Assembly (NCBI RefSeq): GCF_021155765.1
Contig: NC_060111.1
Coordinates: 10,849,981-10,913,980, forward strand
Direction of reading: 5' to 3'
Origin: Diprion similis
Taxonomy: Eukaryota; Arthropoda; Insecta; Hymenoptera; Diprionidae
Length of the DNA stretch: 64,000 nt
Positions 21,472 through 36,963 of this stretch are shown here, piece after piece. Under the pieces are notes generated by a model. It was given only the letters and a program-made list of their open reading frames with translations, was not told the DNA's origin and made no database searches. Position 1 is the stretch's first letter; each line of letters starts with the position of its first letter. Both the position numbers and the translations under genes were made by a program.

Positions 21472-22724
21472 TGTGACGAGGCAATCAGCAGTCGGGCCGA
21501 ACACCTGTTCACCCGTTAACCGATTCCTGAAATCAACCCGCTGCCGCCACCTCGTCACTAGGCCCCGAACCCTTCGGGCCGCGCGAAACCCCTACGAGCC
21601 GCGCGCAACCCCGCGAGCCGCACGCAACCCCTAAGGGCCCTAAGTGCCCGCCAGGCACGCGCGCTGCTCGCATCAAGGGTTCCGCGAGCCAACCCTTATG
21701 GAGGGCCGTTTGGCCCATTGTAAAGACAGTCTCTGCTACACCAGGCTCAGACTCATCCAGGTAACAGGCGCGACTGTTATCTCGTAGTTGGAAGTGTGAA
21801 TAGATTATGCTAGCCGCATATATCTATATCACACCATAGAATCACCTGTCCGGCCTTCCGCCGAAATATATACACCGTTCCGTCATATGTATAAATATAT
21901 ATACCATTCCGATATATATATATATATATACCATTCCGATACAAATACGTATCATTACCGGCCGTCCGCCGTTTACTAAATATTAGTATACCATAATATA
22001 TAGTATACCATTTACCTTGTTATAAATATATGTATACCATTCCGATACAAATACGTATCATTACCGGCCGTACGCCATTTACTAAATATTCATATACCAT
22101 AATATGAAGTGTACCTTTTTTTTTACCTTGTTATATATATATATATATATATCTATAAAGATATATAACATAAATATATAAACATATATATCCATTGTAC
22201 CGGCACCACCGATCTATTACCTGTCATACCTTGTCTAGTACATAAAGATATTTCTTGACCTTTTGTACATATATATATGTTAGTTATAATAATTTGTTAA
22301 AAACCAAGTTGATTGCGGCATACGCTTTTTGTATTTCTGTTTTTCCTAGCGATCCGAAGTGACGCTTGAATAAAACTACAATTATCAATTTAATAACGTG
22401 TCCAATTATTTACTTATCCTACTCCCTCCTATAAACTGACCCTGGTCGACTCCGAGCACCCGGCTGGGGGGGGGGGGGTGCAACCACCACCAAAGGGTAA
22501 TCCGACGCGGGCACTTAGGGCCCTTAGGGGTTGCGTGCGGCTCGCGGGGTTGCGCGCGGCTCGCGGGGTTGCGCGCGGCTCGCGGGGTTGCGCGCGGTTC
22601 GTAGGGGTTGCGCGCGGCCCGAAGGGTTCGGGGCCTAGTGACGAGGTGGCGGCAACGGGTTGATTTCAGGAATCGGTTAACGGGTGAACAGGTGTTTGGC
22701 CCGACTGCTGATTGCCTCGTCACA
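21472..22724 (-). repeat. 1.25-kb LTR-like segment with long inverted ends
   Basis: The plus strand starts TGTGACGAGGCAATC and ends GATTGCCTCGTCACA. The outer about 180-220 bp (21472-21651 and about 22507-22724) are inverted copies, including a GC-rich tandem of GCGCGCAACCCCGCGAGCC units. The middle is AT-rich with dense TATA runs and an AATAAA word on the plus strand (about 22369). On the minus strand the right end follows a purine tract (GGAGGAGGGGAG), exactly where the 3' LTR of the gypsy element at 22725-27660 should begin. It may be a single LTR with palindromic arms, or two LTR pieces in opposite orientation. Confidence 0.6.
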
Positions 22725-22791
22725 CTCCCCTCCTCCTTCGGGAAGCGTGATTTCACGCTATACAGACGGGTGTTGGGTGGTGATTTGAGGC

Positions 22792-23259
22792 TTACGGTTT
22801 GGGGGTGCTGATGAACGTTATGTTGCCGGTCCGGTCCAAACGGATGACCTGCACCACCCCGTGCCGGTGAGGACGCCATTTCCGGGTCCCGACCGGGATC
22901 TCTACCTCCCCGCCGTCGGGCAGCTGGTGGCAGGCTGTCGGCCTTGATGGGACGGGTTGGCCGGTCGAGTACCCAGAATTGGTAGCCGGCTGTGTCCGCT
23001 GGTGGACGGCGGTGCGGATGGGGGTGGTTCTTGCTGATCGAGGGGTGGTCAGGATTCGGAGCGTCCCTCGGTACCGGCTTATCAGCGGCGCCTTGATGAC
23101 CTCTAACTCTGGTGTCGGTGCTGTAGCTGGTGGTCTCGGTCGGTCGGCCAACGTCCGGGTGTTCGGGACGATGGCCGGCCTCCTCGGGCCATCTACCTCG
23201 GCCGTCGGTGGTCTGACGGCCGGGATGTATAGCACTGGCCTTGTTGCTTTACGTTCCAT
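22792..23259 (-). CDS. Accessory frame between pol and 3' LTR, unknown
   Basis: Reading frame of 155 codons starting at the ATG at 23257-23259, downstream of integrase in the gypsy element. The product is rich in Pro, Arg and Thr, with a more structured end (VGTRKWRPHRHGVVQVIRLD). It occupies the position of an env gene but has no signal peptide, no membrane segment and no Cys pattern, so I do not call it an envelope. It could be a short Gag- or integrase-tail-like accessory protein, or non-functional. Confidence 0.35.
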   Translation of the reverse strand: MERKATRPVLYIPAVRPPTAEVDGPRRPAIVPNTRTLADRPRPPATAPTPELEVIKAPLISRYRGTLRILTTPRSARTTPIRTAVHQRTQPATNSGYSTGQPVPSRPTACHQLPDGGEVEIPVGTRKWRPHRHGVVQVIRLDRTGNITFISTPKP

Positions 23260-23363
23260 GTTGTTTTTTTTTTTTTTTTTTACAAGTTGTATCTCGGTCG
23301 ATCCCCAAATATAACTGATTATCTCAGGCCTCGGTAAGTGCTTATATAGTGAATTGTTTACTG

Positions 23364-26300
23364 TTACGTGTCATTTGTTTCATGGACATACAGTTTCAGG
23401 TCCCGCACATGGATGTTTCTTATGATTTTTCCGTTTGTTGCTTGCAGATCGACGATAACGGGTGATACAATTTTATGTACCCGGTACGGCCCGTCATACC
23501 TCGGTTCAAGTTTGGCGTTTCTATTTGCGGCTTTGTTGGACAGTATGTGTGTTTTCCTCCACACATACTGTCCGGTCTGCGGACGCAAATCGCGGTGCCT
23601 CAGGTTGTAATACCGCTGTTGTGTTCGAAACGCACGGGCCAGGTTGATGCGGACGAGCTCGAAGGCTTCCCGGAGCCGTTTATGTCGGCACTCTAGGGGA
23701 AGTCCATCCTTGCTCTTCTGTACTCCCCCGGGGATGGGGAGTTCGCGTCCATAGTTCAGATAGGCAGGCGAGTACCCAGTCGTATCATGTTTAGACGTAT
23801 TATAGGCGAAGGCGAACTCGGATAAGTGTTCGTCCCAGGTCTTTTGTGTTTTTTTAATGTACTGCCTGACCATAGTCTTTATCACCCGGTTGACGCGCTC
23901 TACTGGATTACACTGCGGCGTGTACGGGGGGGGGGGGGGGGGGGGGTACGGCGGTGGCTGATGCCGAACTGTTGCAGCATCCCCTGGAATTCGTTGCTAA
24001 CGAATTGCTTCCCGTTATCGCTGGTGACGGTATTCGGACATCCGTGTCGGAGTATAGCCAATTCCCGTACGGCACGGGTTACGGCGGCGGCGGTTGCTGT
24101 ACGGAGTGGCCGCAGTTCGACCCATTTTGGGAAGCGGTCTTGGAGGACAAGCAGGGAAGAGTGCCTCGCTTTCGACCGTGGTAATGGGCCGACAAGGTCC
24201 ACGGATATGTGCTCCCATGGAGTCGAAACCGGTGTTGCGTGCATCTGCCCGGCTGTGGCTTGTTGCATTGCCTTGTGCTTCTGACAACTGGTGCACGTTC
24301 GCACGTACTGGGTAGCCTCCCTCAGCATGCCTGGCCAGTAATAATTTTGGGCGAGCCTACTGAGGGTTTTGGCGACACCTAGATGTCCCGCGGTTGGTTC
24401 ATCGTGGCTTTCTCGCAGTACGTGCGGCCGTAGCTCCTTGGGAACGCATCTCTTCCATTCTTCCTCTGGGCTGGTGTCGTTATAGTCTAGTGTGTGGAGG
24501 ATGTGCCGGTATAGCTTGCCGTCTCTTATGCAATTATCTGCATTAGCGTCAGGGTTATTCCTGGTGGTCCGGTATAGTTCCTTGTACCATTTACATTGTA
24601 CTGGTCGGCGCAGGGCGAGGAGGCTGTTCCTTGATAGCGCGTCAGCTACGAGGTTTTCCTCCCCTTTGCGGTAGTTCACCTTAAACTCGTATTGTTGGAG
24701 TTCGAGTGCCCATCGTGCGAGTCGGCCGGAAGGGGTATCTAATTTCTGTAACCACTTGAGAGACTGGTGGTCGGTAAGAACGGTGAATTTGTACCCTTCC
24801 AGGTATGCGCGCAGCTTTCGTATTCCCCAGACCACGGCGAGGCATTCTTTTTCAGTTACGGAATAATTCCTCTCGGCGTTGTTGAGAGTCCGACTTGCAT
24901 AAGCTATAACGCGCTCTTCTTCACCCTCCTGTTGCGTCAGGACTGCGCCCAGCCCGGTGGCGCTGGCGTCGGTCTGAAGGGTGAAGGGTTTGTTGAAGTC
25001 AGGGCAAGCCAAGATCGGTGTCGTCGTGAGGTGGACCTTCAATTGCTGGAAGGCCTCTTCCTGGGGTGTCTCCCAGCGCCACTAGGTCCGCTTTTTGAGC
25101 AGCTCGTTTAGCGGGCTGGTGACGGTAGCTACGTTTGGTATGAAGCGGCGATACCATGAGATGAGTCCCAGGAATCGGCGGAGTTCCCGGGTGCTGGTCG
25201 GTGGATTCATCTCTTTTATTGCCTCGAGTTTTTCGGGGTCGGTACGGATCCCGCGCTCATCGATTACGTGGCCAAGGTACCGAAGGCGGGGAACGCAGAA
25301 ATGGCATTTCTCTGGATTCATCCGGAGGTTTGCGTTCCGTAATCGGCAAAACACTTCGCGGAGGTGTTGCAGGTGGTCCTCGAATGTTTGACTTATAATG
25401 ATAATGTCGTCGAGGTAGGCGAAAGCGTGTGGCTCCATCTCAGGTCCAATGATTTGGTCGAGGAGTCGTTGGAAAGTAGCGGGGGCGGAATGAAGCCCAA
25501 AAGGCATTACGGTGAATTGAAGCAGTCCCCTCCCCGGTACGGTAAAGGCGGTAACTTTCTTGCTCTGATCTGTTAGAGGGACCTGCCAGTACCCGTTTTT
25601 GAGGTCAATGGTTGTTAGGACCCGGGCTCCTCTTAGTTTGTCGAGGGTGGCGTTTACCTGTGGCAGGGGATATGCATCTCGTTCCGTGACCTCATTGACC
25701 TTCCGGTAGTCAATGCAGAATCTTGGTTTCCCGTCCTTTTTCTTGGCGATTACCACTGGAGAGCTCCAAGGGCTGTCGGAGGGTTCGATTATTCCCTCCG
25801 AAAGCATCTTCTGAACCTCGGTATCGATGATCTCTTGCATCGCCGGGTTTCTAGGGCGGTACCTTTGTTTTATCGGCAGGTCGGTTTTTAGTCGGATATG
25901 GTGTGTAGCCAAAGGAGTCGGACCATTGACGCAGTCGAATCTGGGCAGTTCCCTGTCCAGAAATTGTTGGAGCTGTTTCTGCTCGTGTAGTGCCGCGGTG
26001 GCTAGACCCTCTGGGTGTCTGGTGTCCCGTACGGTGAACACGGTTGGGTCACATCCCTCAGGATGGAGTACGTGCCCATTCAGGTAGATTCGAAGGTCAA
26101 GCTGTCTTCGAAGGTCGGTACCGATCAAGACGTCATGGTCGAGGGTGGGTAGAACCGGAAAACGGTGATATAGTGTTCTGCCCGCCACGCGGATGTGGCC
26201 CCCGATACTTTCTTTCATGATGGCGGTGGTCCCGTCGGCCAATGTGGCATGGGATGGGTCATCGTGTCGGACCCATCCTGCCTCTAGGCACTTCAGGGCC

Positions 26301-26467
26301 ATCCTCTCATTAACATATGAGACGGCGGCTCCGGTATCCAGCAGGGCGGTAGTTGTATACCCAGCGATTTTTGTCTCTAGACTGAATCTCTCGTGGTTTG
26401 CCGGCCGGATCGGTCTGGGTGGTATCGTCCGGCCGGTACCTAGTTTTCCGGACGGGGGCATTCGCAA
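23364..26467 (-). pseudogene. Gypsy pol: protease, RT, RNase H, integrase (broken)
   Basis: Ty3/gypsy polyprotein overlapping gag in the -1 frame (26440-26467), the usual frameshift arrangement. Order: aspartic protease LLDTGAAVSYV (about 26340); RT with FCIDYRKVN, TIDLKNGYWQVPL, MPFGLHSAPATFQ and the catalytic YLDDI (about 25415); RNase H starting TLQTDASATGLGAVL; integrase zinc finger (H..H..C..C, about 24390-24280), then the first D in SVDLVGPLP and the second in TSDNGKQF. Two lesions: one in-frame TAG at 25082-25084 between RT and RNase H, and a run of 21 G (23926-23946) that shifts the frame inside the integrase core. The last part (23364-23885, RVNRVIKTMV..YNTSKHDTTGYSP) continues in another frame. 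Otherwise well preserved. Confidence 0.9.
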
Positions 26468-27459
26468 TTACAAAAATATACCCCATCTTTGCCGCAGTAC
26501 GAACAGAATAGCTTCGGAGGTCGGTTGCACTGGGTGCGCGCGTGCCCCCTTTGCTTGCACCGCCAGCAACACTCTTTGCGATTGTACTTGCTCGTGGGCG
26601 GCCCTACGGCCGGTTTCGTCACCACGAGAGCCTCGCTCCTGCATGATGGAGGTCTCGCCCGTGCCTCCTCTCGGCATATCTCCTCGTATTCGTCGGTCCT
26701 TTGGACGAGCTGGTTAAAGGTGGACACTGAGTCACGGAGCATATATTCCCGGTATGCAGGGCGAAGACCGTAGTACGCGGTCTCTAGCTGTTCTTCGTGA
26801 GGCATGCCGCCTCTACGCCGCATAAGTGTTTGCAAGTTCGTAACAAAATCTCTTGCCGGTTCGTGTTCGCCCTGGACACGGTTTCTAATTTGTTTGTCTA
26901 GGGCTCTTCTCTCCCCGGCTGGTAGGTAGTATCGTTTGAGGCATGTCTCGAAGTCTTCCCAGGTTGCCCAGGTGCCTTTGGTGTTACGGTACCATAGCAA
27001 TGCCTCTCCTTTTAATAATACCGGTAGACCGCGCAGCATTTGCTGGTCGGTAAGCTGGTACGACTCTCGCAGCTCTTCAGTCCGTTCCAGGAAGGCGAAG
27101 ACTTCCTTCCCATCACAGTGGCATCCCCACTTTCGGATTTGGTCCATTATCCTGACTTCGTCGGGTCTTGGGCGGTCAACCCCTGGTGCTTGCGGTGCGA
27201 CCACCGGGCTCGCAGTGTCAGCCATGTTGTTCACTACGGTTTCGGAAACGTTTGGTCTGGTTGTCTCGGTTGGGTTAACTGGTCCTTTTGGTTCGGTCGG
27301 CTCGGTGGGTTCGGTAATTACACCTGGATTATTTTTAATAAATGTAACCAGGCGTTTTCGAAGTTCATCCAGCGTTCCGGTACAGTCGATTTCAATTTGA
27401 TTGAGTAGCCCTTTCACCTCCTCTCTCCTGAGGTTGTATATCCGTGAGTGGCCGGGCAT
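26440..27459 (-). CDS. Gypsy Gag
   Basis: A 339-codon structural polyprotein that coats retrotransposon RNA. ATG at 27457-27459. The N-terminal half begins with a SAP-like segment (LRREEVKGLLNQIEI). The central region (WATWEDFETCLKRYYLPAGERRALDK and nearby) is the capsid-like retrotransposon Gag fold. The C-terminus has a CCHC knuckle, CWRCKQRGHARTQC, and a second partial C..C group. A TEPTEPTEPKG repeat sits near residue 56. The reading frame is complete and ends inside the pol overlap. Confidence 0.85.
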   Translation of the reverse strand: MPGHSRIYNLRREEVKGLLNQIEIDCTGTLDELRKRLVTFIKNNPGVITEPTEPTEPKGPVNPTETTRPNVSETVVNNMADTASPVVAPQAPGVDRPRPDEVRIMDQIRKWGCHCDGKEVFAFLERTEELRESYQLTDQQMLRGLPVLLKGEALLWYRNTKGTWATWEDFETCLKRYYLPAGERRALDKQIRNRVQGEHEPARDFVTNLQTLMRRRGGMPHEEQLETAYYGLRPAYREYMLRDSVSTFNQLVQRTDEYEEICREEARARPPSCRSEALVVTKPAVGPPTSKYNRKECCWRCKQRGHARTQCNRPPKLFCSYCGKDGVYFCNCECPRPEN

Positions 27460-27642
27460 CTTCGTGCAGGATTGCGGAGCAGGAAAATATATTAACGGTC
27501 TAACCTAACTTATGCTAACAGACTAATACTAAAAGAAATAATGGAGCTCGGAAATATCGGCGGTAAAGAAAATATATCACTCGTCCTGGGAATTAATTAT
27601 GTATATATGGAAACCAAGTTGACGGCTGTTTCAATAATCACG

Positions 27643-27660
27643 GTCCCTGTTCGGGCGCCA
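27643..27660 (-). promoter_or_regulatory. Primer-binding site, tRNA-Lys
   Basis: The minus strand reads TGGCGCCCGAACAGGGAC, the complement of the 3' end of tRNA-Lys(UUU). It should directly follow the 5' LTR, but on the right only about ten bases (TGTAACGG on the plus strand) separate it from the minisatellite. The 5' LTR is therefore missing. Confidence 0.85.
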
Positions 27661-27663
27661 TTT

Positions 27664-27890
27664 TGTAACGGTTGTATACGATTATAGTTAAATTATAATT
27701 TTTAAGGTTTTGATTGTAGAGAGTATAGATACAATCAAAGTTAAATGACAATGTCAGGGGTATAATTGTAGATAGTATATATACCATTATAGTTAAATTA
27801 TAATTTTTAGAGTTTTGATTGTAGATATTATAGATACAAGTCGAAGTTAAATGACAATGTCAGGGGTATAATTGTAGATAGTGTATACGG
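27664..27890. repeat. AT-rich minisatellite, block 3
   Basis: Two units of the same minisatellite as at 18466 and 21368. This shows that the gypsy element at 21472-27660 was inserted inside this array. Confidence 0.7.
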
Positions 27891-28488
27891 TTATTATAAT
27901 AGCGTAATTTGAGACATTTTTATTGAATGATATTTGGGCATAACAATGGATATGTTCTTATAAATATGTAGTAGAGGGCTTAGTCTGTCCAGATGAAGAG
28001 GCAGTCGGAGCTAGCGTCAAGGCTCTGATCGCGGGGCAGTTTACGTGGGTGTTGTCGTAGCTTGGACATTTCCATCATTTCAATTTCTGAATGAGCTCGG
28101 GGCAGCGACGAAGTGCGAGAAGACAGGTCCTTACGGAATGACCTATTTTCTAGGTGAGGGTGGGAAATGGCATGGTGGGAAAGGATTTGGGGTCTTGGAT
28201 GACGTGAGTCGAGGTTGTGTCGTATTCGCCTGGATTCACAGAAAGAGTATACTTTTGAGATTCTTCTAAATAATGAGAGTTTGTAGCAAACGAAAACTGC
28301 TGAGAGGGACGCGAAGACGATTCCGCCATAGCTGAGGTTTTGTGGTGAGGCGATGCATGTTACTTTGAGTACGATAGTGTGTGCTTAGATCGGCTGAGCG
28401 TTTGAACACGTCATTCAGGGCATGAGACGTAATATGATGCAGTTACGGGTAGATTGATAATATACGGCTGTTGACTTCTAAAGGTGGT
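27891..28488 (-). other. 3' untranslated part of the macro-domain gypsy
   Basis: No coding frame with recognisable motifs. The words ACAATGGATATGTTCTTATA near 27945 recur in similar form near 18410, beyond the nested insertions. This supports one continuous 3' region of the outer element. I see no env gene. Confidence 0.5.
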
Positions 28489-31251
28489 TTAATTTGAATC
28501 ACTTTCTTCCTGTGCTAATTTGAGTTTATTCAGATGGACAATTTTGGTTTTATGGGGGGTGATGAAAATTTCGGCATTGATATCGTCAATTATGCGCTTG
28601 ATCGTATATGCTCCTTTATAGTGGTCGTCGAATTTAGATCGGGTTTCGTTTAGTAGATAGACCTTTTGGCCTGCTTCGAAATTTTGGTTGTTGGTACGAC
28701 GGTCGTAGTACGTCTTGGAACGGTGCTTTGCTAAAATGAGGTTAGCCGCGGCGTTTTTTCGTATGCTGGATAGGTTGGAAATTAAATCTAGAAGGAACGA
28801 ATCGTAGGAACGGGTGTAAGCGCTGGCAGGGTTCGCGTCTGTCGGAAGTCTGGCATGGGAACCGAAAATTAGCTGATGGGGAGTGAAGTTAGTGCCTTCG
28901 TGCTTCGCGGTGTTATAACAGAAAATAGCAAAGCGGATGTATTCATCCCAGTCTTTACCAGCATTCGTGTAATGCTTGACGTGTTCGGTGAGAACAAGGT
29001 GACTGCGTTCTAGCGATCCGTTAGATTGTGGGCGGTAAGCTGTAGTTCGTAATTGTTTTATTTTAAAGAGTTTACAAAGTTGCTTAATGACTGTGCTCAT
29101 GAAATTCTGTCCTTGGTCTGTAAGTATTGCTCGAGGGGCACCGTAACGTGTAATGTATTCTTTCGCAAATGCTGCACCTATTGTTTTGGCAGTGGCGTCA
29201 GGTAAAGGGATGGCGTCCAGAAATTTCGTCAAGTTGCATTGTATCGTCAAAAGGTATTTGTTGTTTGATTTAGTAAGGGGGAGAGGACCAACGATGTCTA
29301 GTGCTACTTTGTCGAATGCATCGGCAGGAGTATCTGTTATCACCATCGGCAACCTGGTTTTTACTCTTACTAGTTTTTTCTTTTGGCAACTCTCACAAGT
29401 TCTTATAAAGTCTTGGATTTGCTCTTTCATGTGGGGCCAAAAATATTTTTGTCTAATGCGGTTGTATATTTTTGTGACGCCTTGATGACCGCCAATTAAT
29501 GATTCGTGGCATTCTTTAATTATTTCTTTACGTAAACATTCGTCTGGGGTGACAGTCGTGTTGCGGCAAAGCGTAATTTGAATTTGTAAGTCTGCGAAAA
29601 GGTGAGATAAGAGTTTTCGGATAACACGAGGATCGAGTCCACCTAAACTATCGTCCGTTATTGGGAAAGCGAGGGATTTCGGAATTGAATCGGTCAAGAC
29701 TGTTTCCAGTTTAGACAAGAGTTGAAAAATATCATATAAGTTGCTTTTATCTGATTCTTTTGATTTTAGTACTAGAGTAAAGATCCGTCGGCTGTTATGC
29801 TTGGATTCGATAATATCAAATTTCTGTGGACGGGGCGTCATAACTATATCTGGGTCAACGATATTATTGTGGGCAAGTTGTGATGATATGCCTTTAGTCC
29901 AAGAGCAGTCTGTTGATATAAAGTGTGCATAATTGGTTTTGAGCATCAAAAGACCATCATTGGTGTCTTTGACATTGTCAGCTACCGGTATGTCGTCCAA
30001 GTTGTCAACAAAGTTCGTGAAATCGTGGGAGGTATCGGTCAAATCGTCGTCGACATTGGGATTAATGTCATGGTCAGGGTGTGTGGTTTCCATATCGGAT
30101 TCGGATTGTCGGGCGCATGTATGGTATTCGGTATCCGTGAGCGAGTTGGAGCTGTTGTCGTTATCAGAGGCCAGTGTGGGTACTGAGGGAGGAGGCGGAG
30201 GGGGGTGAGTAGTAGAGTTCGCTGGCCTGGGGACAGCTGTTGGGCGTCTCTTAGCACGACGCGGGGGTCCTACAGGCGGGGGCATGACGACGTTCGCGGC
30301 TGGGAGGGGAGGTGGGGTCGCGAGAGGTGCGACTGATTTGGTCGGAGGTTGCGGTTTCTTACGCGGCGGACGAAAAGAGGGAGCGGGGTTACCAGATGTG
30401 GAAGGGATGGGGTCAGGTGAGGCGTTATCATCGGACACCGTTGTGTCGTCGTGGTGTGTGGGGGTTGAAAGCGGAGGATCAAGGCGACAAACGGTGATAT
30501 TCATTTTTGAATCTTTGAAAATATAGTGGATCATTTTGCGCACCGTGCTCCATTCTAGTTTGTCGAGTCCGCAGCCTATTAACGGGATTGAGACAGATCT
30601 TACACCATCTTCTTCCAAGGTTTTCCTAAAGTTGACCAACGTATCAAAAAACACGTGTGGTAAGGGTTTGTCATTGTACTTTGGCTTTGTCACTAGGTTG
30701 TGAATTTTTCGGTGTCCGTGAGTGGTAGAAATAACGTCAGTCACAGTCGGATTGAATTCTCTAAGTTGTTCGCGATTTATGAATTTACGTTCTCTTAGCT
30801 GTGACGCGATTCCTTTTGACATTTGGCAATCAGCTGATATGCAGTGAGCCAAATTATCTTTTTGCTGTAGTAGGTCGGCTTTTATTTCTTTAATATATTT
30901 ATTACGCATAAGAGGGAACGTGTCGCATTCTATAAGGAAATCGCTATAGGAGGGGTTGTGAATGTGAGGGGAGCTAGGTAAATCGGTAGACGAATTAATG
31001 TCATCAACTTCCGAGTTCGTCTCTGGGGTTTGTAGGTCATCTGAGCTAGTTGAAGTGTCCGAAAAGTAGCTCAGGTGTGGTCTCTTACGTGGTCCAGGGT
31101 TTGTAGAGGAATTCGTTTCTCGATGGCGTTTCGGGTAGGGATGAACCGGGTGCGGAGGTGGGATGGAGGGGGGAGGTTTAAAAGGCATTGCGGTTTCTTT
31201 GTCACTGGATTCGTCATCTGAGAGATCAGAAGAATCAGAGGGGTATATCAT
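28489..31251 (-). CDS. Pol C-terminal part: tandem macro domains plus integrase
   Basis: A 920-codon uninterrupted frame in the same register as the upstream RT/RNase H (one TAG between them at 31486). Residues 1-110 are low-complexity Ser/Asp/Pro. Residues 121-256 are a macro domain of TARG1/OARD1 type: NLAHCISADCQMSKGIA, then HNLVTKPKY, then IPLIGCGLDKLEW. Lys189 and Asp230 match the catalytic Lys and Asp of that ADP-ribosyl-glutamate hydrolase family. A Pro-rich linker (260-360) leads to a second, degenerate macro domain (434-562: YAHFISTDCSWTKGIS, with the GCGLD loop replaced by DSLGGLD). Integrase follows: H582, H589, C619, C622, then D652 (LDIVGP), D712 (TDQGQNF), E748 (NGSLERS), and a C-terminal LNETRSKFDDHYKGAY module. 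Integrase and first macro domain are firm; the second is likely; the role is inference. Confidence 0.88.
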   Translation of the reverse strand: MIYPSDSSDLSDDESSDKETAMPFKPPPSIPPPHPVHPYPKRHRETNSSTNPGPRKRPHLSYFSDTSTSSDDLQTPETNSEVDDINSSTDLPSSPHIHNPSYSDFLIECDTFPLMRNKYIKEIKADLLQQKDNLAHCISADCQMSKGIASQLRERKFINREQLREFNPTVTDVISTTHGHRKIHNLVTKPKYNDKPLPHVFFDTLVNFRKTLEEDGVRSVSIPLIGCGLDKLEWSTVRKMIHYIFKDSKMNITVCRLDPPLSTPTHHDDTTVSDDNASPDPIPSTSGNPAPSFRPPRKKPQPPTKSVAPLATPPPLPAANVVMPPPVGPPRRAKRRPTAVPRPANSTTHPPPPPPSVPTLASDNDNSSNSLTDTEYHTCARQSESDMETTHPDHDINPNVDDDLTDTSHDFTNFVDNLDDIPVADNVKDTNDGLLMLKTNYAHFISTDCSWTKGISSQLAHNNIVDPDIVMTPRPQKFDIIESKHNSRRIFTLVLKSKESDKSNLYDIFQLLSKLETVLTDSIPKSLAFPITDDSLGGLDPRVIRKLLSHLFADLQIQITLCRNTTVTPDECLRKEIIKECHESLIGGHQGVTKIYNRIRQKYFWPHMKEQIQDFIRTCESCQKKKLVRVKTRLPMVITDTPADAFDKVALDIVGPLPLTKSNNKYLLTIQCNLTKFLDAIPLPDATAKTIGAAFAKEYITRYGAPRAILTDQGQNFMSTVIKQLCKLFKIKQLRTTAYRPQSNGSLERSHLVLTEHVKHYTNAGKDWDEYIRFAIFCYNTAKHEGTNFTPHQLIFGSHARLPTDANPASAYTRSYDSFLLDLISNLSSIRKNAAANLILAKHRSKTYYDRRTNNQNFEAGQKVYLLNETRSKFDDHYKGAYTIKRIIDDINAEIFITPHKTKIVHLNKLKLAQEESDSN

Positions 31252-31485
31252 TTGATAGGTGGGTTGTGAGATTTTTGGGCATTTTAGCGGGGCCGGGTTC
31301 GTAGATTCGTCTGTGGTCTGTCGAGGGCGTCGGGGGTACTGATGGGTCTCTTTGGTGCGTTTTTTCGGTTTGCTGTCAGAGGATTCGGTCGTAGGACGAG
31401 GGCGTTTTGCATCTATAGGAAGGATTTGTGCGACGTCAGGCGGCGTGTTTCTTGATAGAGCATCGGCGTTGACATTCGCTTTTCC

Positions 31486-32538
31486 CTATTTATGTTTGGT
31501 ATCAAAATCGTATTCTGCTAGTTCTAGACTCCATCGTAATAAACGAGAATTAGGCTTCTTAACGCTTTTTACCCACTTGAGGGGCTCGTGGTCTGTAACT
31601 AAAGTAAATTTCTGACCGTAGATGTAGGGGCGAAAGTGGTTGATGCTCCAGTAGGCGGCTAAAAATTCTTTATCGGGCACCGAGTAATTTAATTCAGCGG
31701 ATTTGAGTGCTCGGGATGCGTACGCTACTGGTAAGTCGGCACCGTTCTTATCTTGACTCAGAACCGCACCGATGGCGAATTTTGACGCGTCGGTAGTAAG
31801 CGTAAACGGCTTACTGAAGTCCGGGTATTGGAGAATTGGTTCTTTGCATAAACAATCACGTAAGGTTTCGAAGGCAGATTGGTGTTCGGATGTCCAAATG
31901 AAAGGAGTATCCTTCTTGGTTAGGTTAGTGAGGCATTTTGCAGTTTTTCCGAAATTTGGGACAAACCTGGGATAATAACCCAAAAGACCGAGGAACTGTT
32001 TAACATTTTTGGGATTTTTCGGGACAGGATATTCTTTCACGGCTACTAACTTCCCGGGGTCAGGTCCAACTCCTGACTCAGTGATAAGGTGACCAAGGTA
32101 AACGACTTCTTTGCGCAGGAATTGGCATTTGTCTGGCTGCAGAGTCAAGCCGGCTTCAGTTAGTCTTTTCATCAATTTTCTGAATTTAATTTCATGTTCT
32201 TGTAAATTTCGAGCGTAAATAACTATGTCATCCAAATATACGAACATCTCGTTGCCTTGTAAGCCTAGCAGGACTTGATCCATGAGCCTTTGGAACGTGG
32301 CAGGGGCGTTTTTTAGTCCGAAGGGCATTCGGGAGAATTCATAGTGACCCCGGGGCGTCGAAAACGCAGTTTTTGCACTGTGATCGGGGTGCATGGGAAT
32401 TTGATGAAAGCCGGAAGCAAGGTCGAATGTAGAGAAATATTTAGCTGAGCCAAGTTGATCAAGAATTTCGGTGATGTCGGGCATTGGATAGGCGTCGCCG
32501 ATTGTTTTTTCGTTGAGCTTTCGGTAGTCGATCACCAT
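31486..32538 (-). CDS. Pol central part: reverse transcriptase and RNase H
   Basis: Same frame as the protease segment upstream (single TGA at 32758) and the macro/integrase segment downstream (single TAG at 31486). RT motifs: MVIDYRKLNEKT, TFDLASGFHQIPM, SRMPFGLKNAPATFQRLMD and the intact catalytic FVYLDDIVIYA. RNase H: FTLTTDASKFAIGAVLSQ, then ELNYSVPDKEFLAAYW and LVTDHEPLKWV. The open frame actually extends upstream to 32755, before the first Met. Sequence style is that of the 17.6/297-like gypsy group. Converts element RNA to DNA in the particle. The catalytic residues are all present; only the two flanking stops argue against activity. Confidence 0.92.
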   Translation of the reverse strand: MVIDYRKLNEKTIGDAYPMPDITEILDQLGSAKYFSTFDLASGFHQIPMHPDHSAKTAFSTPRGHYEFSRMPFGLKNAPATFQRLMDQVLLGLQGNEMFVYLDDIVIYARNLQEHEIKFRKLMKRLTEAGLTLQPDKCQFLRKEVVYLGHLITESGVGPDPGKLVAVKEYPVPKNPKNVKQFLGLLGYYPRFVPNFGKTAKCLTNLTKKDTPFIWTSEHQSAFETLRDCLCKEPILQYPDFSKPFTLTTDASKFAIGAVLSQDKNGADLPVAYASRALKSAELNYSVPDKEFLAAYWSINHFRPYIYGQKFTLVTDHEPLKWVKSVKKPNSRLLRWSLELAEYDFDTKHK

Positions 32539-32757
32539 GCGCCATCGTTTATTACCGTCAATATCGGGTTTTTTGGGGACGATCCAAACCGGAGAATTAT
32601 AAGGAGATGCGGAATGTTTAATAAGGTCTTGCCAAAGGAGTTTATTAACCTGGGATTCGATTTCATCTTTGTGGATTTTTGGAAAACGATATTGTTTGGT
32701 GTGAATTGGTGTGTCGTCTGTCGTGGGGATAGTGTGATGGGTTAGATTGGTATGGCC

Positions 32758-33735
32758 TCATTTATCTCCCGGGAGATAGAAAAGATAGTTAAATTCTGTT
32801 AGCAGGTCGAGTGTTGATTGTTTTTCGGTGTCATTTAGATGATCGAGGCACACACTATTCTTTAGTGTGTCCAATCTCTCTGACCTACTGTCAGTTAAGA
32901 GTACTGTTGCGGCGCCACGACGAGGTGCACTGTTATCAGGTATGCGGGGCTCAGGTTGCCGATGTGCGAGGTCAGTGAGCTGGCGGGGGTTGGAGGGGGG
33001 GTAATGGGGCGGACGGGATATGTGATTATTAGTGGAAAGAATTAATGAATTATTATGAGAAGTGGTTTGGGTAGGAAGGGGGGATTTTTGTCCATTATTT
33101 TTGTCAGAATTATTCGGCGGGGTAAACTTAATTTCGGGCATGGCTGTGCTCAGTGGTTCGTCGAATTCTTCCAGGGTTGCCGTTGGAGATGCTATCTCTA
33201 CGACAGATTCGTTGCAATTGAACACGTAGGAATAAGCGATGCCGTTCTGATTTCGAACTATTGCTTCACCACAAAGAACATTGTTGCCTAAATTAATGTG
33301 TTTAAGGTAGCCTACTTTGATATCTGGGTTTGCAACTATTATCGGGATGACCTTCGCGGTGCGGGCCTGTATTGTGATAACACGTGCGGTTTCAGGAGGA
33401 GGTTGTTCGATTTTGTTGAAGTGGATTGGCAATGAGGATCCAAGCATTACCGAGTTTGAGTTGAATGAGATAGTTGCTTTCTCTTTTCGTAAAAAGGGTT
33501 GGCTTAAAATACCGTCATGTGGGACTGGGAATGAATCAGGGACCAAGTGAAAGGTATGGGAGTTGTTATTAAAGCGTATTTCCGTTTTTGCGATGGTTTC
33601 CGTCTTTTCGTCCGTTATACCAGTCAATGTCAAACGTTCGTCTGTGGTGCGTCGTACGAAGGGCTTAACACAACTTTCTTTGATTAAGTTTACGTCTGCA
33701 CCGGTGTCGATAATAAATTTAGAGATCTTTGTCAA
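32758..33735 (-). CDS. Pol N-terminal part: aspartic protease
   Basis: The retropepsin motif FIIDTGADVNLI appears at residues 6-17 of this frame. A long linker with Pro/Ser/Asn-rich segments follows and runs toward the RT. The frame lies -1 relative to gag, as in most gypsy elements, and reads open above the first Met. It ends in a single TGA (32758-32760), after which RT coding continues in register. The protease would cut the Gag-Pol polyprotein. Confidence 0.8.
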   Translation of the reverse strand: MTKISKFIIDTGADVNLIKESCVKPFVRRTTDERLTLTGITDEKTETIAKTEIRFNNNSHTFHLVPDSFPVPHDGILSQPFLRKEKATISFNSNSVMLGSSLPIHFNKIEQPPPETARVITIQARTAKVIPIIVANPDIKVGYLKHINLGNNVLCGEAIVRNQNGIAYSYVFNCNESVVEIASPTATLEEFDEPLSTAMPEIKFTPPNNSDKNNGQKSPLPTQTTSHNNSLILSTNNHISRPPHYPPSNPRQLTDLAHRQPEPRIPDNSAPRRGAATVLLTDSRSERLDTLKNSVCLDHLNDTEKQSTLDLLTEFNYLFYLPGDK

Positions 33736-33809
33736 TTCAGGGGTATCGATTGAAATTAAAGGGGGATCAGCTGAAGCTGTTATTAAGATGTGTCTTGTGG
33801 ATCGGAACG

Positions 33810-34901
33810 CTAGTTGTTTGCATAGCTCGCGGGCGCGTTCTCCCCGCGGGCAGTGTTGCCGTTTAAATCTTGATTCGAACTTACATGGTTTTGGTTATCA
33901 CGCGGGGGAGATCTACATTGGTCTGATGTGTGGCCTCTGCGCTTACAGTTATCGCAGTACAGTTTGTCGCTTCTGCTGGGTTGGTTGCACTCATTGTAAA
34001 AGTGGCCCATTCTGCGACATTTGGTACAGTATCTTGTATTTTGCAGGCGATGGCATTCCGTGATCAGGTGACCTCGGTGGTTGCAGAATTGGCAAATAGT
34101 CGGCGAGGTCCTCGTTCGATCTGCGGGAGGTGCGAGGGTGCTTGCACCGAGCGCTTGCTGATGCGCGTAACCAGGTGTGGGCAATGACATTAGAGGGGGG
34201 ATGAGGGAGGGGGTTATGGACACCTGAGGTGGAGGGGTATCGTTTTGGCAGGCAGAGACGGAAATTGGGGGATACATAGGTGTAGGAGGAGTACAATATT
34301 GTGCAAAGCGTTGCATTTGACGGTTATTTAACTCTGTCTCCTCGCTTTCGGCGACGCTGACGGCGATATCAAAGGTAGGGAGTGGTCTGATGGTAGCTAT
34401 TCTCCACTCTAATTCTGGTCTAAGCCCTCTTATGAATGTTCTAGCAGTGTCTTTTCTTAAGTCATTTAGCAAAGCGCTTGCTATGTCTGGCGGGTATTTT
34501 TTTTCGATAGCTTTGCTTATTTCGTTAGATATTACTTTTATTCTGCATGAGTAATCGATGACACGCTCACGCGGTTGTTGGGTAATTCTATCTAATTGAA
34601 TTGATAATTGACGTACGGGGATGTCTGGACGGTATGCTCGGCTGAGGGCCGTTATAAGGTCTTCGACGTCGTTGCAATTAATGCCTACTAAATATTGGGA
34701 AGCGGGGCCGGTAATTTTTGATTGTGCAAATTTAGCAAGGGTCATTTTGTCTGAAGCTCTAATGAGGGTTTCCACGTGGCGCAATTGTTCCACAAATTGG
34801 TCAAAAGGCATGTTGTTGCCATCGAATGCAGGGATCGTCGGTAAGACGTCTTTTATTGACCAAAAAGATGGACCGGTCTCATTAGTTGGTGCCATATCGA
34901 T
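33810..34901 (-). CDS. Gag of the macro-domain gypsy
   Basis: The start is chosen at the Met opening MAPTNETGPSFW (34901); the frame is open upstream to 34994. The capsid-like region (PTIPAFDGNNMPFDQFVEQL, later IRGLRPELEW) is followed by three zinc knuckles in a row: CQFCNHRGHLITEC, CTKCRRMGHFYNEC and CDNCKRRGHTSDQC. Three CCHC boxes are more than the one or two usual for gypsy Gags. The frame is intact. It overlaps the -1 pol frame near its end. Confidence 0.85.
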   Translation of the reverse strand: MDMAPTNETGPSFWSIKDVLPTIPAFDGNNMPFDQFVEQLRHVETLIRASDKMTLAKFAQSKITGPASQYLVGINCNDVEDLITALSRAYRPDIPVRQLSIQLDRITQQPRERVIDYSCRIKVISNEISKAIEKKYPPDIASALLNDLRKDTARTFIRGLRPELEWRIATIRPLPTFDIAVSVAESEETELNNRQMQRFAQYCTPPTPMYPPISVSACQNDTPPPQVSITPSLIPPLMSLPTPGYAHQQALGASTLAPPADRTRTSPTICQFCNHRGHLITECHRLQNTRYCTKCRRMGHFYNECNQPSRSDKLYCDNCKRRGHTSDQCRSPPRDNQNHVSSNQDLNGNTARGENAPASYANN

Positions 34902-35259
34902 TTTCGTAGATGGGCAATGGGTACGGGGATGAAATATCAACTTATTACTAAGGATTACAACAAACTTACAGAGCAAAGATGAACACAAACGCAAGGTACA
35001 GCATGGTTGTAAGCGGCTGAAGGCAGGTGAGACTTGAAGATGTGATGCACGTCGTCCGTCGGCAAGAGGAGGGTGTAGGCGGGGAAGTCCGTTGCGTGTT
35101 GAAGAGTCTCGGTTTGGTGTTCCAGGTATCTGAGTGATGCCAATCTTGGGTCCAAATTCTTGTTCCAGCGTCGCAGGCGTCCAGAAACGGGTGGGGGCTA
35201 ATCACAATTTTGGGTTCCAAAAGGTGATGTGTGGTATAGATCGGCTGTCGTCCGTATAT

Positions 35260-35530
35260 TTAGTTCGTTGCGGGTTCTGAATTTGTCAGGTTCACACTTG
35301 ATTTGCCGGCGAACACTCTTGACGTGGCTATCACTTATTGATATGATATCGGGAGTTTTGCGTATTAACACTCTTCTTGCGTCGTATATTTCCACTCGTT
35401 GCACAGTTCGTTGCGAGTCCTGAATTTGTCAGGTACGCACTTGATTTGCCGGCGAACACTGTCTACGTGGCTATCACTTATTGATATGATATCGGAAGTT
35501 TTGCGTATTAATACTTTTCTTGCGTAGATT
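35260..35530. repeat. Tandem duplication in the 5' leader of the macro-domain gypsy
   Basis: Two copies of about 140 bp share CTGAATTTGTCAGGT, TTGATTTGCCGGCGAACACT and GTGGCTATCACTTATTGATA in order. They lie between the primer-binding site and gag. Confidence 0.75.
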
Positions 35531-35568
35531 TTCCGAAGCACTGAACAAAGGGTAGGTCGACGGCAAAA

Positions 35569-35580
35569 CCGCTGCCACCA
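35569..35580 (-). promoter_or_regulatory. Primer-binding site of the macro-domain gypsy
   Basis: The minus strand reads TGGTGGCAGCGG three bases after the 5' LTR end, beginning with the TGG that pairs with tRNA CCA. I do not name the tRNA. Confidence 0.55.
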
Positions 35581-35583
35581 GAA

Positions 35584-36025
35584 TGTTACGGTACAGGGGG
35601 ACGGCAGTCCATGTACTTACCCGATGGTGTTGGTTCGGGTGATATTTTTGTAGGTTCGTAGTCGTCGCCGTTTTCGTTCAGGGAACGGAAAGGAAAGAAC
35701 AGTAATTACAGAATGATTATAACTTTTATTTTGATTTCGAAATTGAGTGAAGTCGATGAGGAGTAGTTGAGACAATGGTTTTGGGGAACGGGAGTTGAAG
35801 TTGAATGCAAGAAGTAAGAGCGTTGGAATCAGAGTGAGACTTTTGCATGAGAAAATGAGCGAGGATACAGGGTAGAGGGGGATCGAAATAGCAAGGTAAG
35901 GGCGATAGCGAGTGGTGTAAGCCAAGATGGAAATAGGATGACAAGATATGGAGTGTCGGAATGGTAGGTAAAGACAAGCGTCGAGGAAGGTGGGAGAAAC
36001 GTGAGGCGGGACGTCGGACGTAACA
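35584..36025 (-). repeat. 5' LTR of the macro-domain gypsy element
   Basis: Matches 17773-18214 in the same orientation over 442 bp with scattered differences. A primer-binding site follows on the minus strand, so it is the 5' LTR. The whole element spans 17773-36025, about 10.4 kb without its two insertions. The right flank is the palindrome at 36026. Confidence 0.87.
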
Positions 36026-36963
36026 CATCCCTTATTTCCGAAAGAAAAAAAATTTTCAAAAAAAAAACGCCATTTTTTTTAAATCTGAAAAAATTCTCAA
36101 AAAACCGTGATAACATATAAAAATTTTCAAGCTATCACCCGTAGTGAGCAGATTTTTTTAAATGTGTTTTACGAGCTATTAACCTTCACAAAATTCCAAA
36201 AAAATTCTCAAATAGCTCACTTTGAGCAGATATTGAATTATTTCGGTACTCGAAATGAATATAAAATTCATAATTGATACTATAGAATTCATTTTGAGTA
36301 CCGAAATAATTCAGTATCTGCTCAAGGTGAGCTATTCGAGAATTTTTTGGAATTTTGTGAACGTTAACAGCTTGTAAAACACATTTAATAAAATCTGCCC
36401 ACTACGGGTGATAGCTGGAAAATTTTTATATGTTGTTACGGTACAGGAGGACTGCAGTCCATGTACCCACCCGTTGGTGTTGGTTCGGGTGCTATTTTTG
36501 TTGGTTCGTAGTCGTCGCCGTCTTCGTACAGGGAACGGAAGGGAAAGAACAGTAATTAGAGAATGATTATAACTTTTATTTTGATTTGGAAATTGAGTGA
36601 AGTCGATGAGGAGTAGTTGAGGCAATGGTTTTGGGGAACGGGAGTTGAAGCTGAATGTAAGAGGTAAGAGCGTTGGAATACGAGTGAGCTTTTGCATGAG
36701 AAAATGAGCGAGGATCCAGGGTAGAGGGGAATCGAAATAGCAAGGTAAGGGCGATAGCGAGTGGTGTAAGGCAAGATGGAAATAGGATGACAAGATATGG
36801 AGTGTGGGAATGACAGGTGAAGACAAGCGTCGAGGAAGGTGAAAGAGACGTGAGGCGGGACGTCGGACGTAACAATGTTATCACAGTTTTTTGAGAATTT
36901 TTTCAGATTTTAAAAAAATGGCGTTTTTGTTTTGAAACAAATTTTTTTCTGAGATAAGGGATG
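36026..36963. repeat. Long AT-rich palindrome (foldback or MITE)
   Basis: The left arm begins CATCCCTTATTTCCG and the right arm ends GAGATAAGGGATG. The arms match in reverse complement around a centre near 36265 (ATTATTTCGGTACTC..GAGTACCGAAATAAT). The right arm is split by a solo LTR at 36434-36874. The left arm abuts the gypsy LTR directly, so it may be cut there. Confidence 0.8.
36434..36874 (-). mobile_element. Solo LTR of the macro-domain gypsy family
   Basis: A third copy of the 441-442-bp LTR, flanked on both sides by ATGT (36430-36433 and 36875-36878), a 4-bp target duplication. It interrupts the right arm of the palindrome. Frames inside it are shared by all three LTRs and are non-coding. 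Confidence 0.88.

What the first reader, a model, noticed from the sequence alone, without database searches (positions are those of the whole stretch)
30484..30891. TARG1/OARD1-like macro domain fused ahead of a retrotransposon integrase
The Pol frame carries NLAHCISADCQMSKGIA, LVTKPKY and IPLIGCGLDKLEW in the order of TARG1, the hydrolase that removes ADP-ribose from glutamate. The residues aligned with its catalytic Lys and Asp are kept (Lys189, Asp230). I know macro domains from coronaviruses, alphaviruses and cellular proteins, but not as a standard part of Ty3/gypsy Pol. Reversal of PARP-type host ADP-ribosylation at integration sites or in element particles is an attractive but unproven role.
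Basis: partly seen in the sequence, partly recalled or inferred. Interest (0 to 1): 0.87.

Follow-up and report, generated by a model that had tools for sequence, protein, structure and literature searches.

The report
Retrotransposon carrying two ADP-ribose-removing domains
A family of sawfly jumping genes carries, inside its replication polyprotein and ahead of the integrase, a well-preserved copy of an animal enzyme type that removes ADP-ribose tags plus a second, altered copy, which suggests that the element edits a host tag linked to DNA damage and defence.

The parts
30484..30897 (-). macro1: TARG1-type macro domain, Lys189/Asp230 of the 920-aa ORF kept
29974..30483 (-). linker between the macro domains, proline-rich, fast evolving
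29566..29973 (-). macro2: diverged second macro domain; in this copy Gly at the place of Asp125, Lys kept, GCGLD loop lost
29374..29544 (-). integrase zinc-binding domain (PF17921), starts 8 residues after the end of the macro2 match
29029..29301 (-). integrase core (PF00665)
31486..32538 (-). reverse transcriptase + RNase H; ORF ends in an in-frame stop at 31486-31488
32758..33735 (-). protease part of pol (RVP E=0.004, below Pfam cut-off); ORF ends in an in-frame stop at 32758-32760
33810..34994 (-). gag ORF with zinc-knuckle motifs (Pfam matches all below cut-off)
35584..36025 (-). 5' LTR (TGTTA...TAACA in copies with both LTRs)
27675..36025 (-). extent of the element copy; similarity to the fuller copy L050 stops at 27675, before a 3' LTR

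Best explanation
An insect Ty3/gypsy-like lineage carries in Pol, between RNase H and integrase, a captured TARG1/OARD1-type mono-ADP-ribosylhydrolase (macro1) and a paralogous, probably non-catalytic macro domain (macro2) fused to the front of the integrase. Shown by computation: homology, fold of macro1, retained catalytic pair, presence in several families with long open pol frames, purifying selection. Inferred: the domain came from a spliced animal-type TARG1 transcript (the sawfly's own genes have an intron there, the element copies do not) and the pair arose by tandem duplication. Inferred mechanism: macro1, made with Pol and packaged with it, removes ADP-ribose put by host PARPs (most likely PARP1-type, activated by DNA ends) on the element's own proteins, its linear cDNA ends or chromatin at the integration site, so that integration or later expression is not blocked. 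macro2 serves as an integrase-side scaffold or weak reader. My probabilities: macro1 of TARG1 type 0.98; catalytically active in intact copies 0.8; macro2 inactive 0.7; role against PARP signalling 0.5.
For: Sequence. Fold. Lys and Asp both kept in 18 of 18 family A copies compared (19 rows, one being the same place twice; 18 of the 35 counted) and in 13 of 13 RNaseH-side macro1 rows from A, B, C, D, E, G, two Neodiprion proteins, Athalia P0126 and P0127. Selection on macro1: C against D omega 0.07 at dS 0.47 (RT 0.02), C against L012 0.09, E against L028 0.18; 0.17-0.46 in the 26 family A pairs that set L051, L052 or L053 against other copies, or L052 against L051/L053 (dS 0.21-0.57). macro2: 0.16 and 0.15 for C against D and L012, 0.17-0.21 for L052 against the ten others. 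macro1 and macro2 match each other at about 1e-20 inside one element; family B macro2 matches TARG1 itself at 9.9e-10. Controls: two gypsy-type elements outside the lineage (L070, the window's second element) give no macro match better than E 1 with either of two profiles. Host OARD1 pair with GT-AG intron. In PARP-1-null Drosophila 5 of 8 significantly changed mobile elements rose, and ten more rose without passing the significance limits, nine of these of the gypsy superfamily (PMC7712786, passages). TARG1 acts on proteins and on ADP-ribosylated nucleic-acid ends (PMC7050489, passages).
Against: No biochemical or expression data. The window copy itself has two stops in pol upstream and lacks a 3' LTR. 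Family H (L069) has no macro1 between RNase H and integrase and keeps only a macro2-like domain, so macro1 is dispensable in at least one related lineage. macro2 is not plainly dead: in 5 of 10 macro2 rows (Athalia, C, D, E, P0127) Lys and Asp are both present in the aligned columns although the loop around the Asp is changed. Close copies show omega up to 1.38 (L003-L054) and 3.13 (L051-L053, 1 synonymous and 11 nonsynonymous changes), and E-L023 0.41, L022-L035 0.43, as expected of decaying copies or noise. The PARP-1 effect on mobile elements may be indirect, as its authors say. The donor is not resolved: macro1 rows do not form one clade in the free tree.
Confidence: 0.6

Rival explanations
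1. The macro pair works as an integration-targeting reader: macro domains bind ADP-ribose on damaged or PARylated chromatin and bring the integrase there, much as chromodomains are thought to do in chromoviruses (recalled); hydrolysis is secondary.
For: macro2 lies directly before the integrase zinc finger (residues 562 and 570) and is kept in family H where macro1 is gone. ALC1-class macro domains include readers (PMC7050489, passage).
Against: macro1 keeps the catalytic pair in 13 of 13 rows, which a reader would not need; macro2 has lost the GCGLD loop in 10 of 10 rows, B having GSGFD with Lys changed to Thr, so ADP-ribose binding by macro2 is doubtful.
Confidence: 0.2
2. The macro domain serves a metabolic step, such as O-acetyl-ADP-ribose hydrolysis or clearing ADP-ribose from nucleic acid modified by a non-PARP enzyme, unrelated to host defence.
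For: TARG1 has O-acyl-ADP-ribose and nucleic-acid-end activities and, with DarG and SCO6735, removes thymidine-linked ADP-ribose (PMC7050489, PMC9411070 passages). The position between RNase H and integrase recalls the dUTPase of some lentiviruses (recalled).
Against: No element-specific evidence for such a substrate.
Confidence: 0.15
3. A passenger: an OARD1 retrocopy that landed in one element and has no function.
For: One copy alone could look like this; close copies have high omega.
Against: Present in-frame in many copies and several diverged families with long open frames and under purifying selection between them.
Confidence: 0.03

Closest known systems
Human TARG1/OARD1 (C6orf130), ALC1-like macrodomain hydrolase
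   Different: stand-alone cellular enzyme; here a domain of a retroelement Pol, with a second copy
Fish epsilon-like endogenous retroviruses with macro-domain ORFs (Basta 2009, as described in PMC4977317; one passage seen; a DOI I recalled for the original is not held)
   Same: retroelements that picked up a macro domain
   Different: vertebrate retroviruses; described there as additional open reading frames; macro class and position not seen by me
MacroD-type macrodomains of coronaviruses, Togaviridae and Hepeviridae (PMC7050489 passages)
   Same: virus-encoded eraser thought to act against antiviral PARPs
Chromoviruses and dUTPase-bearing lentiviruses (recalled)
   Same: extra host-type domain in Pol near integrase
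   Different: chromodomain or dUTPase instead of a macro domain

Membership tests
TARG1/OARD1-type macrodomain hydrolase (macro1) | specific sequence similarity to TARG1 | tested here: met
   E 3.6e-19 to TARG1, next chains at 0.0016 or weaker
TARG1/OARD1-type macrodomain hydrolase (macro1) | macro fold closest to TARG1 | tested here: met
TARG1/OARD1-type macrodomain hydrolase (macro1) | catalytic Lys84/Asp125 pair | tested here: met
   18 of 18 family A copies compared; 13 of 13 RNaseH-side macro1 rows
TARG1/OARD1-type macrodomain hydrolase (macro1) | ADP-ribosyl hydrolase activity | not testable with these tools
   needs an assay
TARG1-type hydrolase (macro2) | intact GCGLD loop | tested here: not met
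   0 of 10 macro2 rows; homology itself is met
TARG1-type hydrolase (macro2) | catalytic Lys/Asp pair | tested here: inconclusive
   both letters in the aligned columns in 5 of 10 rows, not in the other 5, the window copy among them; the alignment is unsure around the changed loop
Ty3/gypsy LTR retrotransposon | PR-RT-RNaseH-integrase order with flanking LTRs and short target duplication | tested here: met
   LTRs of 442 nt, identical within L045 and within L047, with 4-bp duplications TTAG and CGTT; L050 (LTRs 97% alike) shows none
Ty3/gypsy LTR retrotransposon | placement among named Ty3/gypsy clades | not tested
   no named reference elements at hand
Errantivirus (env-bearing insect gypsy) | env gene between integrase and 3' LTR | tested here: not met
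   in L045 and L047 the longest listed open frame lying between integrase and 3' LTR has about 150 codons; env-like stretches do occur in family F, P0129 (weak) and P0139

The most novel reading that the evidence does not exclude
A widespread lineage of insect Ty3/gypsy-like elements carries an eraser-plus-pseudo-eraser pair of TARG1 class beside its integrase as a dedicated answer to host PARP signalling at DNA ends, and macro domains of this class have been recruited or moved repeatedly to other positions in retroelement polyproteins (before RT, after integrase), making ADP-ribosylation a general battleground between retroelements and animal genomes.
Probability: 0.35. Interest if true: 0.9.

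Novelty: new variant of a known kind. Interest (0 to 1): 0.78.

Why it matters
The viral macrodomain erasers in the review passages I saw are of MacroD type in RNA viruses. A TARG1-class eraser built into the polyprotein that also holds reverse transcriptase and integrase would tie ADP-ribosylation directly to cDNA integration, a link that can be tested with a small soluble domain. The altered copy next to integrase is a natural experiment in turning an eraser into something else, and family H, which lacks macro1, is a built-in contrast.

Tried and rejected
Passenger or chance: rejected by copies, families and selection. Pfam Macro alone as the test: too insensitive for family A (0.0034, below cut-off) and blind to B. 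All macro1 rows as one clade without macro2: rejected (p-AU 0.008); macro1+macro2 as one clade is not rejected (p 0.11), nor with P0139 and P0017 added (p 0.19), so one capture is possible but not shown, and a later re-acquisition in families E and G is possible. The clade test was misnamed by me (it left out E_L028 and P0139), so I do not use its p of 0.009; the tree rebuilt, without P0140 and E_L028, separates the 11 rows of this lineage from the two rows without macro domains at 100/99, with only those two outside rows. IMG/VR contigs: 23 TARG1-like loci, none with a match to this RT or integrase within the stretch held. Four long or odd rows were dropped from the second macro tree: F_L029_mRHINT, F_L029_m3, P0140, P0136. 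On writing up I first called macro2 plainly non-catalytic; one search shows Lys and Asp in the aligned columns in 5 of 10 rows, so I now say probably. In print: ten full-text searches, seven pairing macro, OARD1, TARG1 or Appr-1-p terms with retroelement terms and one with endogenous retrovirus and fish; the listings showed no Ty3/gypsy macro report; one search listed only 20 of 99 papers, and only open-licence papers are covered.

Full report

A second macro domain. Residues 427-562 (window 29566-29973) are a diverged paralogue: in tblastn macro1 and macro2 of the same element match at about 1e-20, and a profile built from the 60 TARG1-like sequences scores it at 3e-12. Its direct match to TARG1 is weak (0.63), but the family B counterpart reaches 9.9e-10. 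In this copy macro2 has Gly at the Asp125 place, keeps the Lys and has no GCGLD loop. Across 10 macro2 rows none keeps GCGLD, but 5 (Athalia, C, D, E, P0127) have both Lys and Asp in the aligned columns, so loss of activity is likely, not shown. macro2 ends just before the integrase zinc finger (residues 562 and 570).

The copy. Upstream in the same frame lie RT/RNase H and a weakly matched protease, interrupted by two in-frame stops. The 5' LTR is at 35584-36025; similarity to the fuller copy L050 ends at 27675, next to another gypsy-type element with a primer-site-like match at 27643-27660. L050, about 49 kb away, shares both stops and is 99.1% identical over 6.5 kb; no collinear flanking match was seen in the few hundred bases compared. 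A pol-broken lineage has multiplied, by duplication or with help in trans.

Copies in the same genome. G000 (269 Mb, 60 contigs; nearest named proteins are from Neodiprion sawflies) gave 150 scored macro matches out of 242 candidates, so counts are lower bounds. By my count of that table, 35 (the window copy included) cover at least 150 of 152 residues at 83-100% identity, 31 of the 35 without a stop inside, and eight lie in open frames of 1801-1802 codons. Copies with both LTRs read here (L045, L047, L050) are 9.1-9.2 kb long with LTRs of 442 nt; the LTR pairs of L045 and L047 are 100% identical with 4-bp target duplications, which means recent insertion; L050's are 97% identical, without a clear duplication.

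Further families. Loci of families that I call A, B, C, D and E carry two macro domains between RNase H and integrase; G has macro1 with a weak second match in L035. In the table family C has six copies in 1841-codon frames and family E six in 1676-1724-codon frames. Family F (L029, partly L030) has a very diverged domain there (0.032 with the TARG1-like profile; 3.6e-12 with a macro2 profile that did not hold it) and two further macro domains after the integrase, the last one cut by a stop, with a protease-like stretch (by eye) between them. Family H (L069) has a long linker and a single macro2-like domain (2.1e-12 with the TARG1-like profile, which did not hold it). A more distant gypsy-type element (L070) and the window's second element give no macro match better than E 1 with either profile, and have about 125 and 78 residues from the RNase H end motif to the integrase zinc finger. 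In an RT tree the 11 rows of this lineage, aphid protein P0139 included, separate from those two at 100/99.

Other species. With the family E macro1 as query, 15 proteins reached E <= 0.001; 6 of the 15 carry RT, RNase H or integrase domains: Athalia rosae P0126 and P0127 (unnamed source) with the same two-macro layout, P0129 (integrase, chromodomain, macro, a stretch weakly like a rhabdovirus glycoprotein), Carabus P0135 (integrase, then macro), Uroleucon P0139 (RNase H, macro, Baculo_F) and P0140 (macro ahead of RT). Of 120 listed hits (5777 in all) of the profile search, two carry integrase domains, P0017 and P0072. A first search with the window's macro1 gave two proteins, both Neodiprion with RT. 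So macro domains sit at three positions in retroelement proteins: before RT, between RNase H and integrase, and after integrase.

Selection. Nei-Gojobori omega for macro1 is 0.07 between C and D (32 synonymous, 11 nonsynonymous changes, dS 0.47), 0.09 between C and L012, 0.18 between E and L028; RT gives 0.02, 0.03 and 0.17 in the same comparisons; macro2 gives 0.16 and 0.15 in the two C comparisons; two close pairs give 0.41 and 0.43. In family A the 26 deeper macro1 pairs give 0.17-0.46 and the ten macro2 pairs with L052 0.17-0.21, the linker mostly higher; close pairs are noisy and reach 1.38 and 3.13. The Lys/Asp pair is kept in 18 of 18 family A copies compared and in 13 of 13 RNaseH-side macro1 rows.

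Origin. The sawfly genome has two neighbouring OARD1-like genes (contig C2, 13.509 and 13.512 Mb) split by a GT-AG intron at the same place; element copies have none, as expected after passage through RNA. In the trees macro2 rows form one group (99/91), and E and G macro1 lie near insect OARD1 rows without firm support. A single origin of macro1 and macro2 is not rejected (p 0.11); macro1 without macro2 is (p 0.008). Long branches make these trees weak.

How it may work. TARG1 removes ADP-ribose from proteins and from nucleic-acid ends (PMC7050489, passages) and, like DarG, from thymidine in DNA (PMC9411070, passages). In PARP-1-null Drosophila 5 of 8 significantly changed mobile elements rose (3 of the 8 are gypsy-superfamily LTR elements), and ten more rose without passing the limits, nine of them gypsy-superfamily; the authors note that this may be indirect (PMC7712786, passages). 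Linear cDNA is a DNA end, so an eraser packaged with integrase is a sensible counter-measure; this step is inference. macro2, constrained but without the loop, is best seen as an integrase-side scaffold or weak reader.

Novelty. Fish endogenous retroviruses with macro-domain ORFs are mentioned in PMC4977317 (one passage). My searches (listed under Tried and rejected) showed no macro domain in Ty3/gypsy Pol. I therefore file it as a new variant of a known kind: retroelements with a captured host-type domain, here of a class and in an arrangement I have not found described.

Noticed in passing
L029 (C14:3852500-3862000), family F: Element with macro domains after the integrase and, downstream, a fragment of a Monjiviricetes-type fusion glycoprotein (PF24664, E 8.4e-28).
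   Followed up: partly
window 27675-36025 and L050 (C7:10923500-10933400): Two copies share the same two pol stops; only L050 has a 3' LTR; a pol-broken lineage seems to have multiplied.
   Followed up: partly
L051, L053, L052 against the window copy: macro1 and macro2 of one copy can have very different dS (L053: 0.32 and 0.05; L052: 0.26 and 0.82), which suggests mosaic elements made by recombination between subfamilies.
   Followed up: no
window 22000-27660, minus strand: A second, frame-broken gypsy-type element with a primer-site-like match (tRNA-Lys type, recalled) at 27643-27660 abuts the truncated end.
   Followed up: no
window 36434-36874: A further copy of the element's LTR lies about 0.4 kb beyond its 5' LTR.
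   Followed up: no
P0136, P0137 (Cloeon dipterum): Mayfly proteins with helicase and Tudor domains and a TARG1-like macro domain, a cellular fusion worth a look.
   Followed up: no
L063 (C1:16469400-16470600): Two macro-like stretches closest to family E in one locus, one with an altered loop.
   Followed up: no
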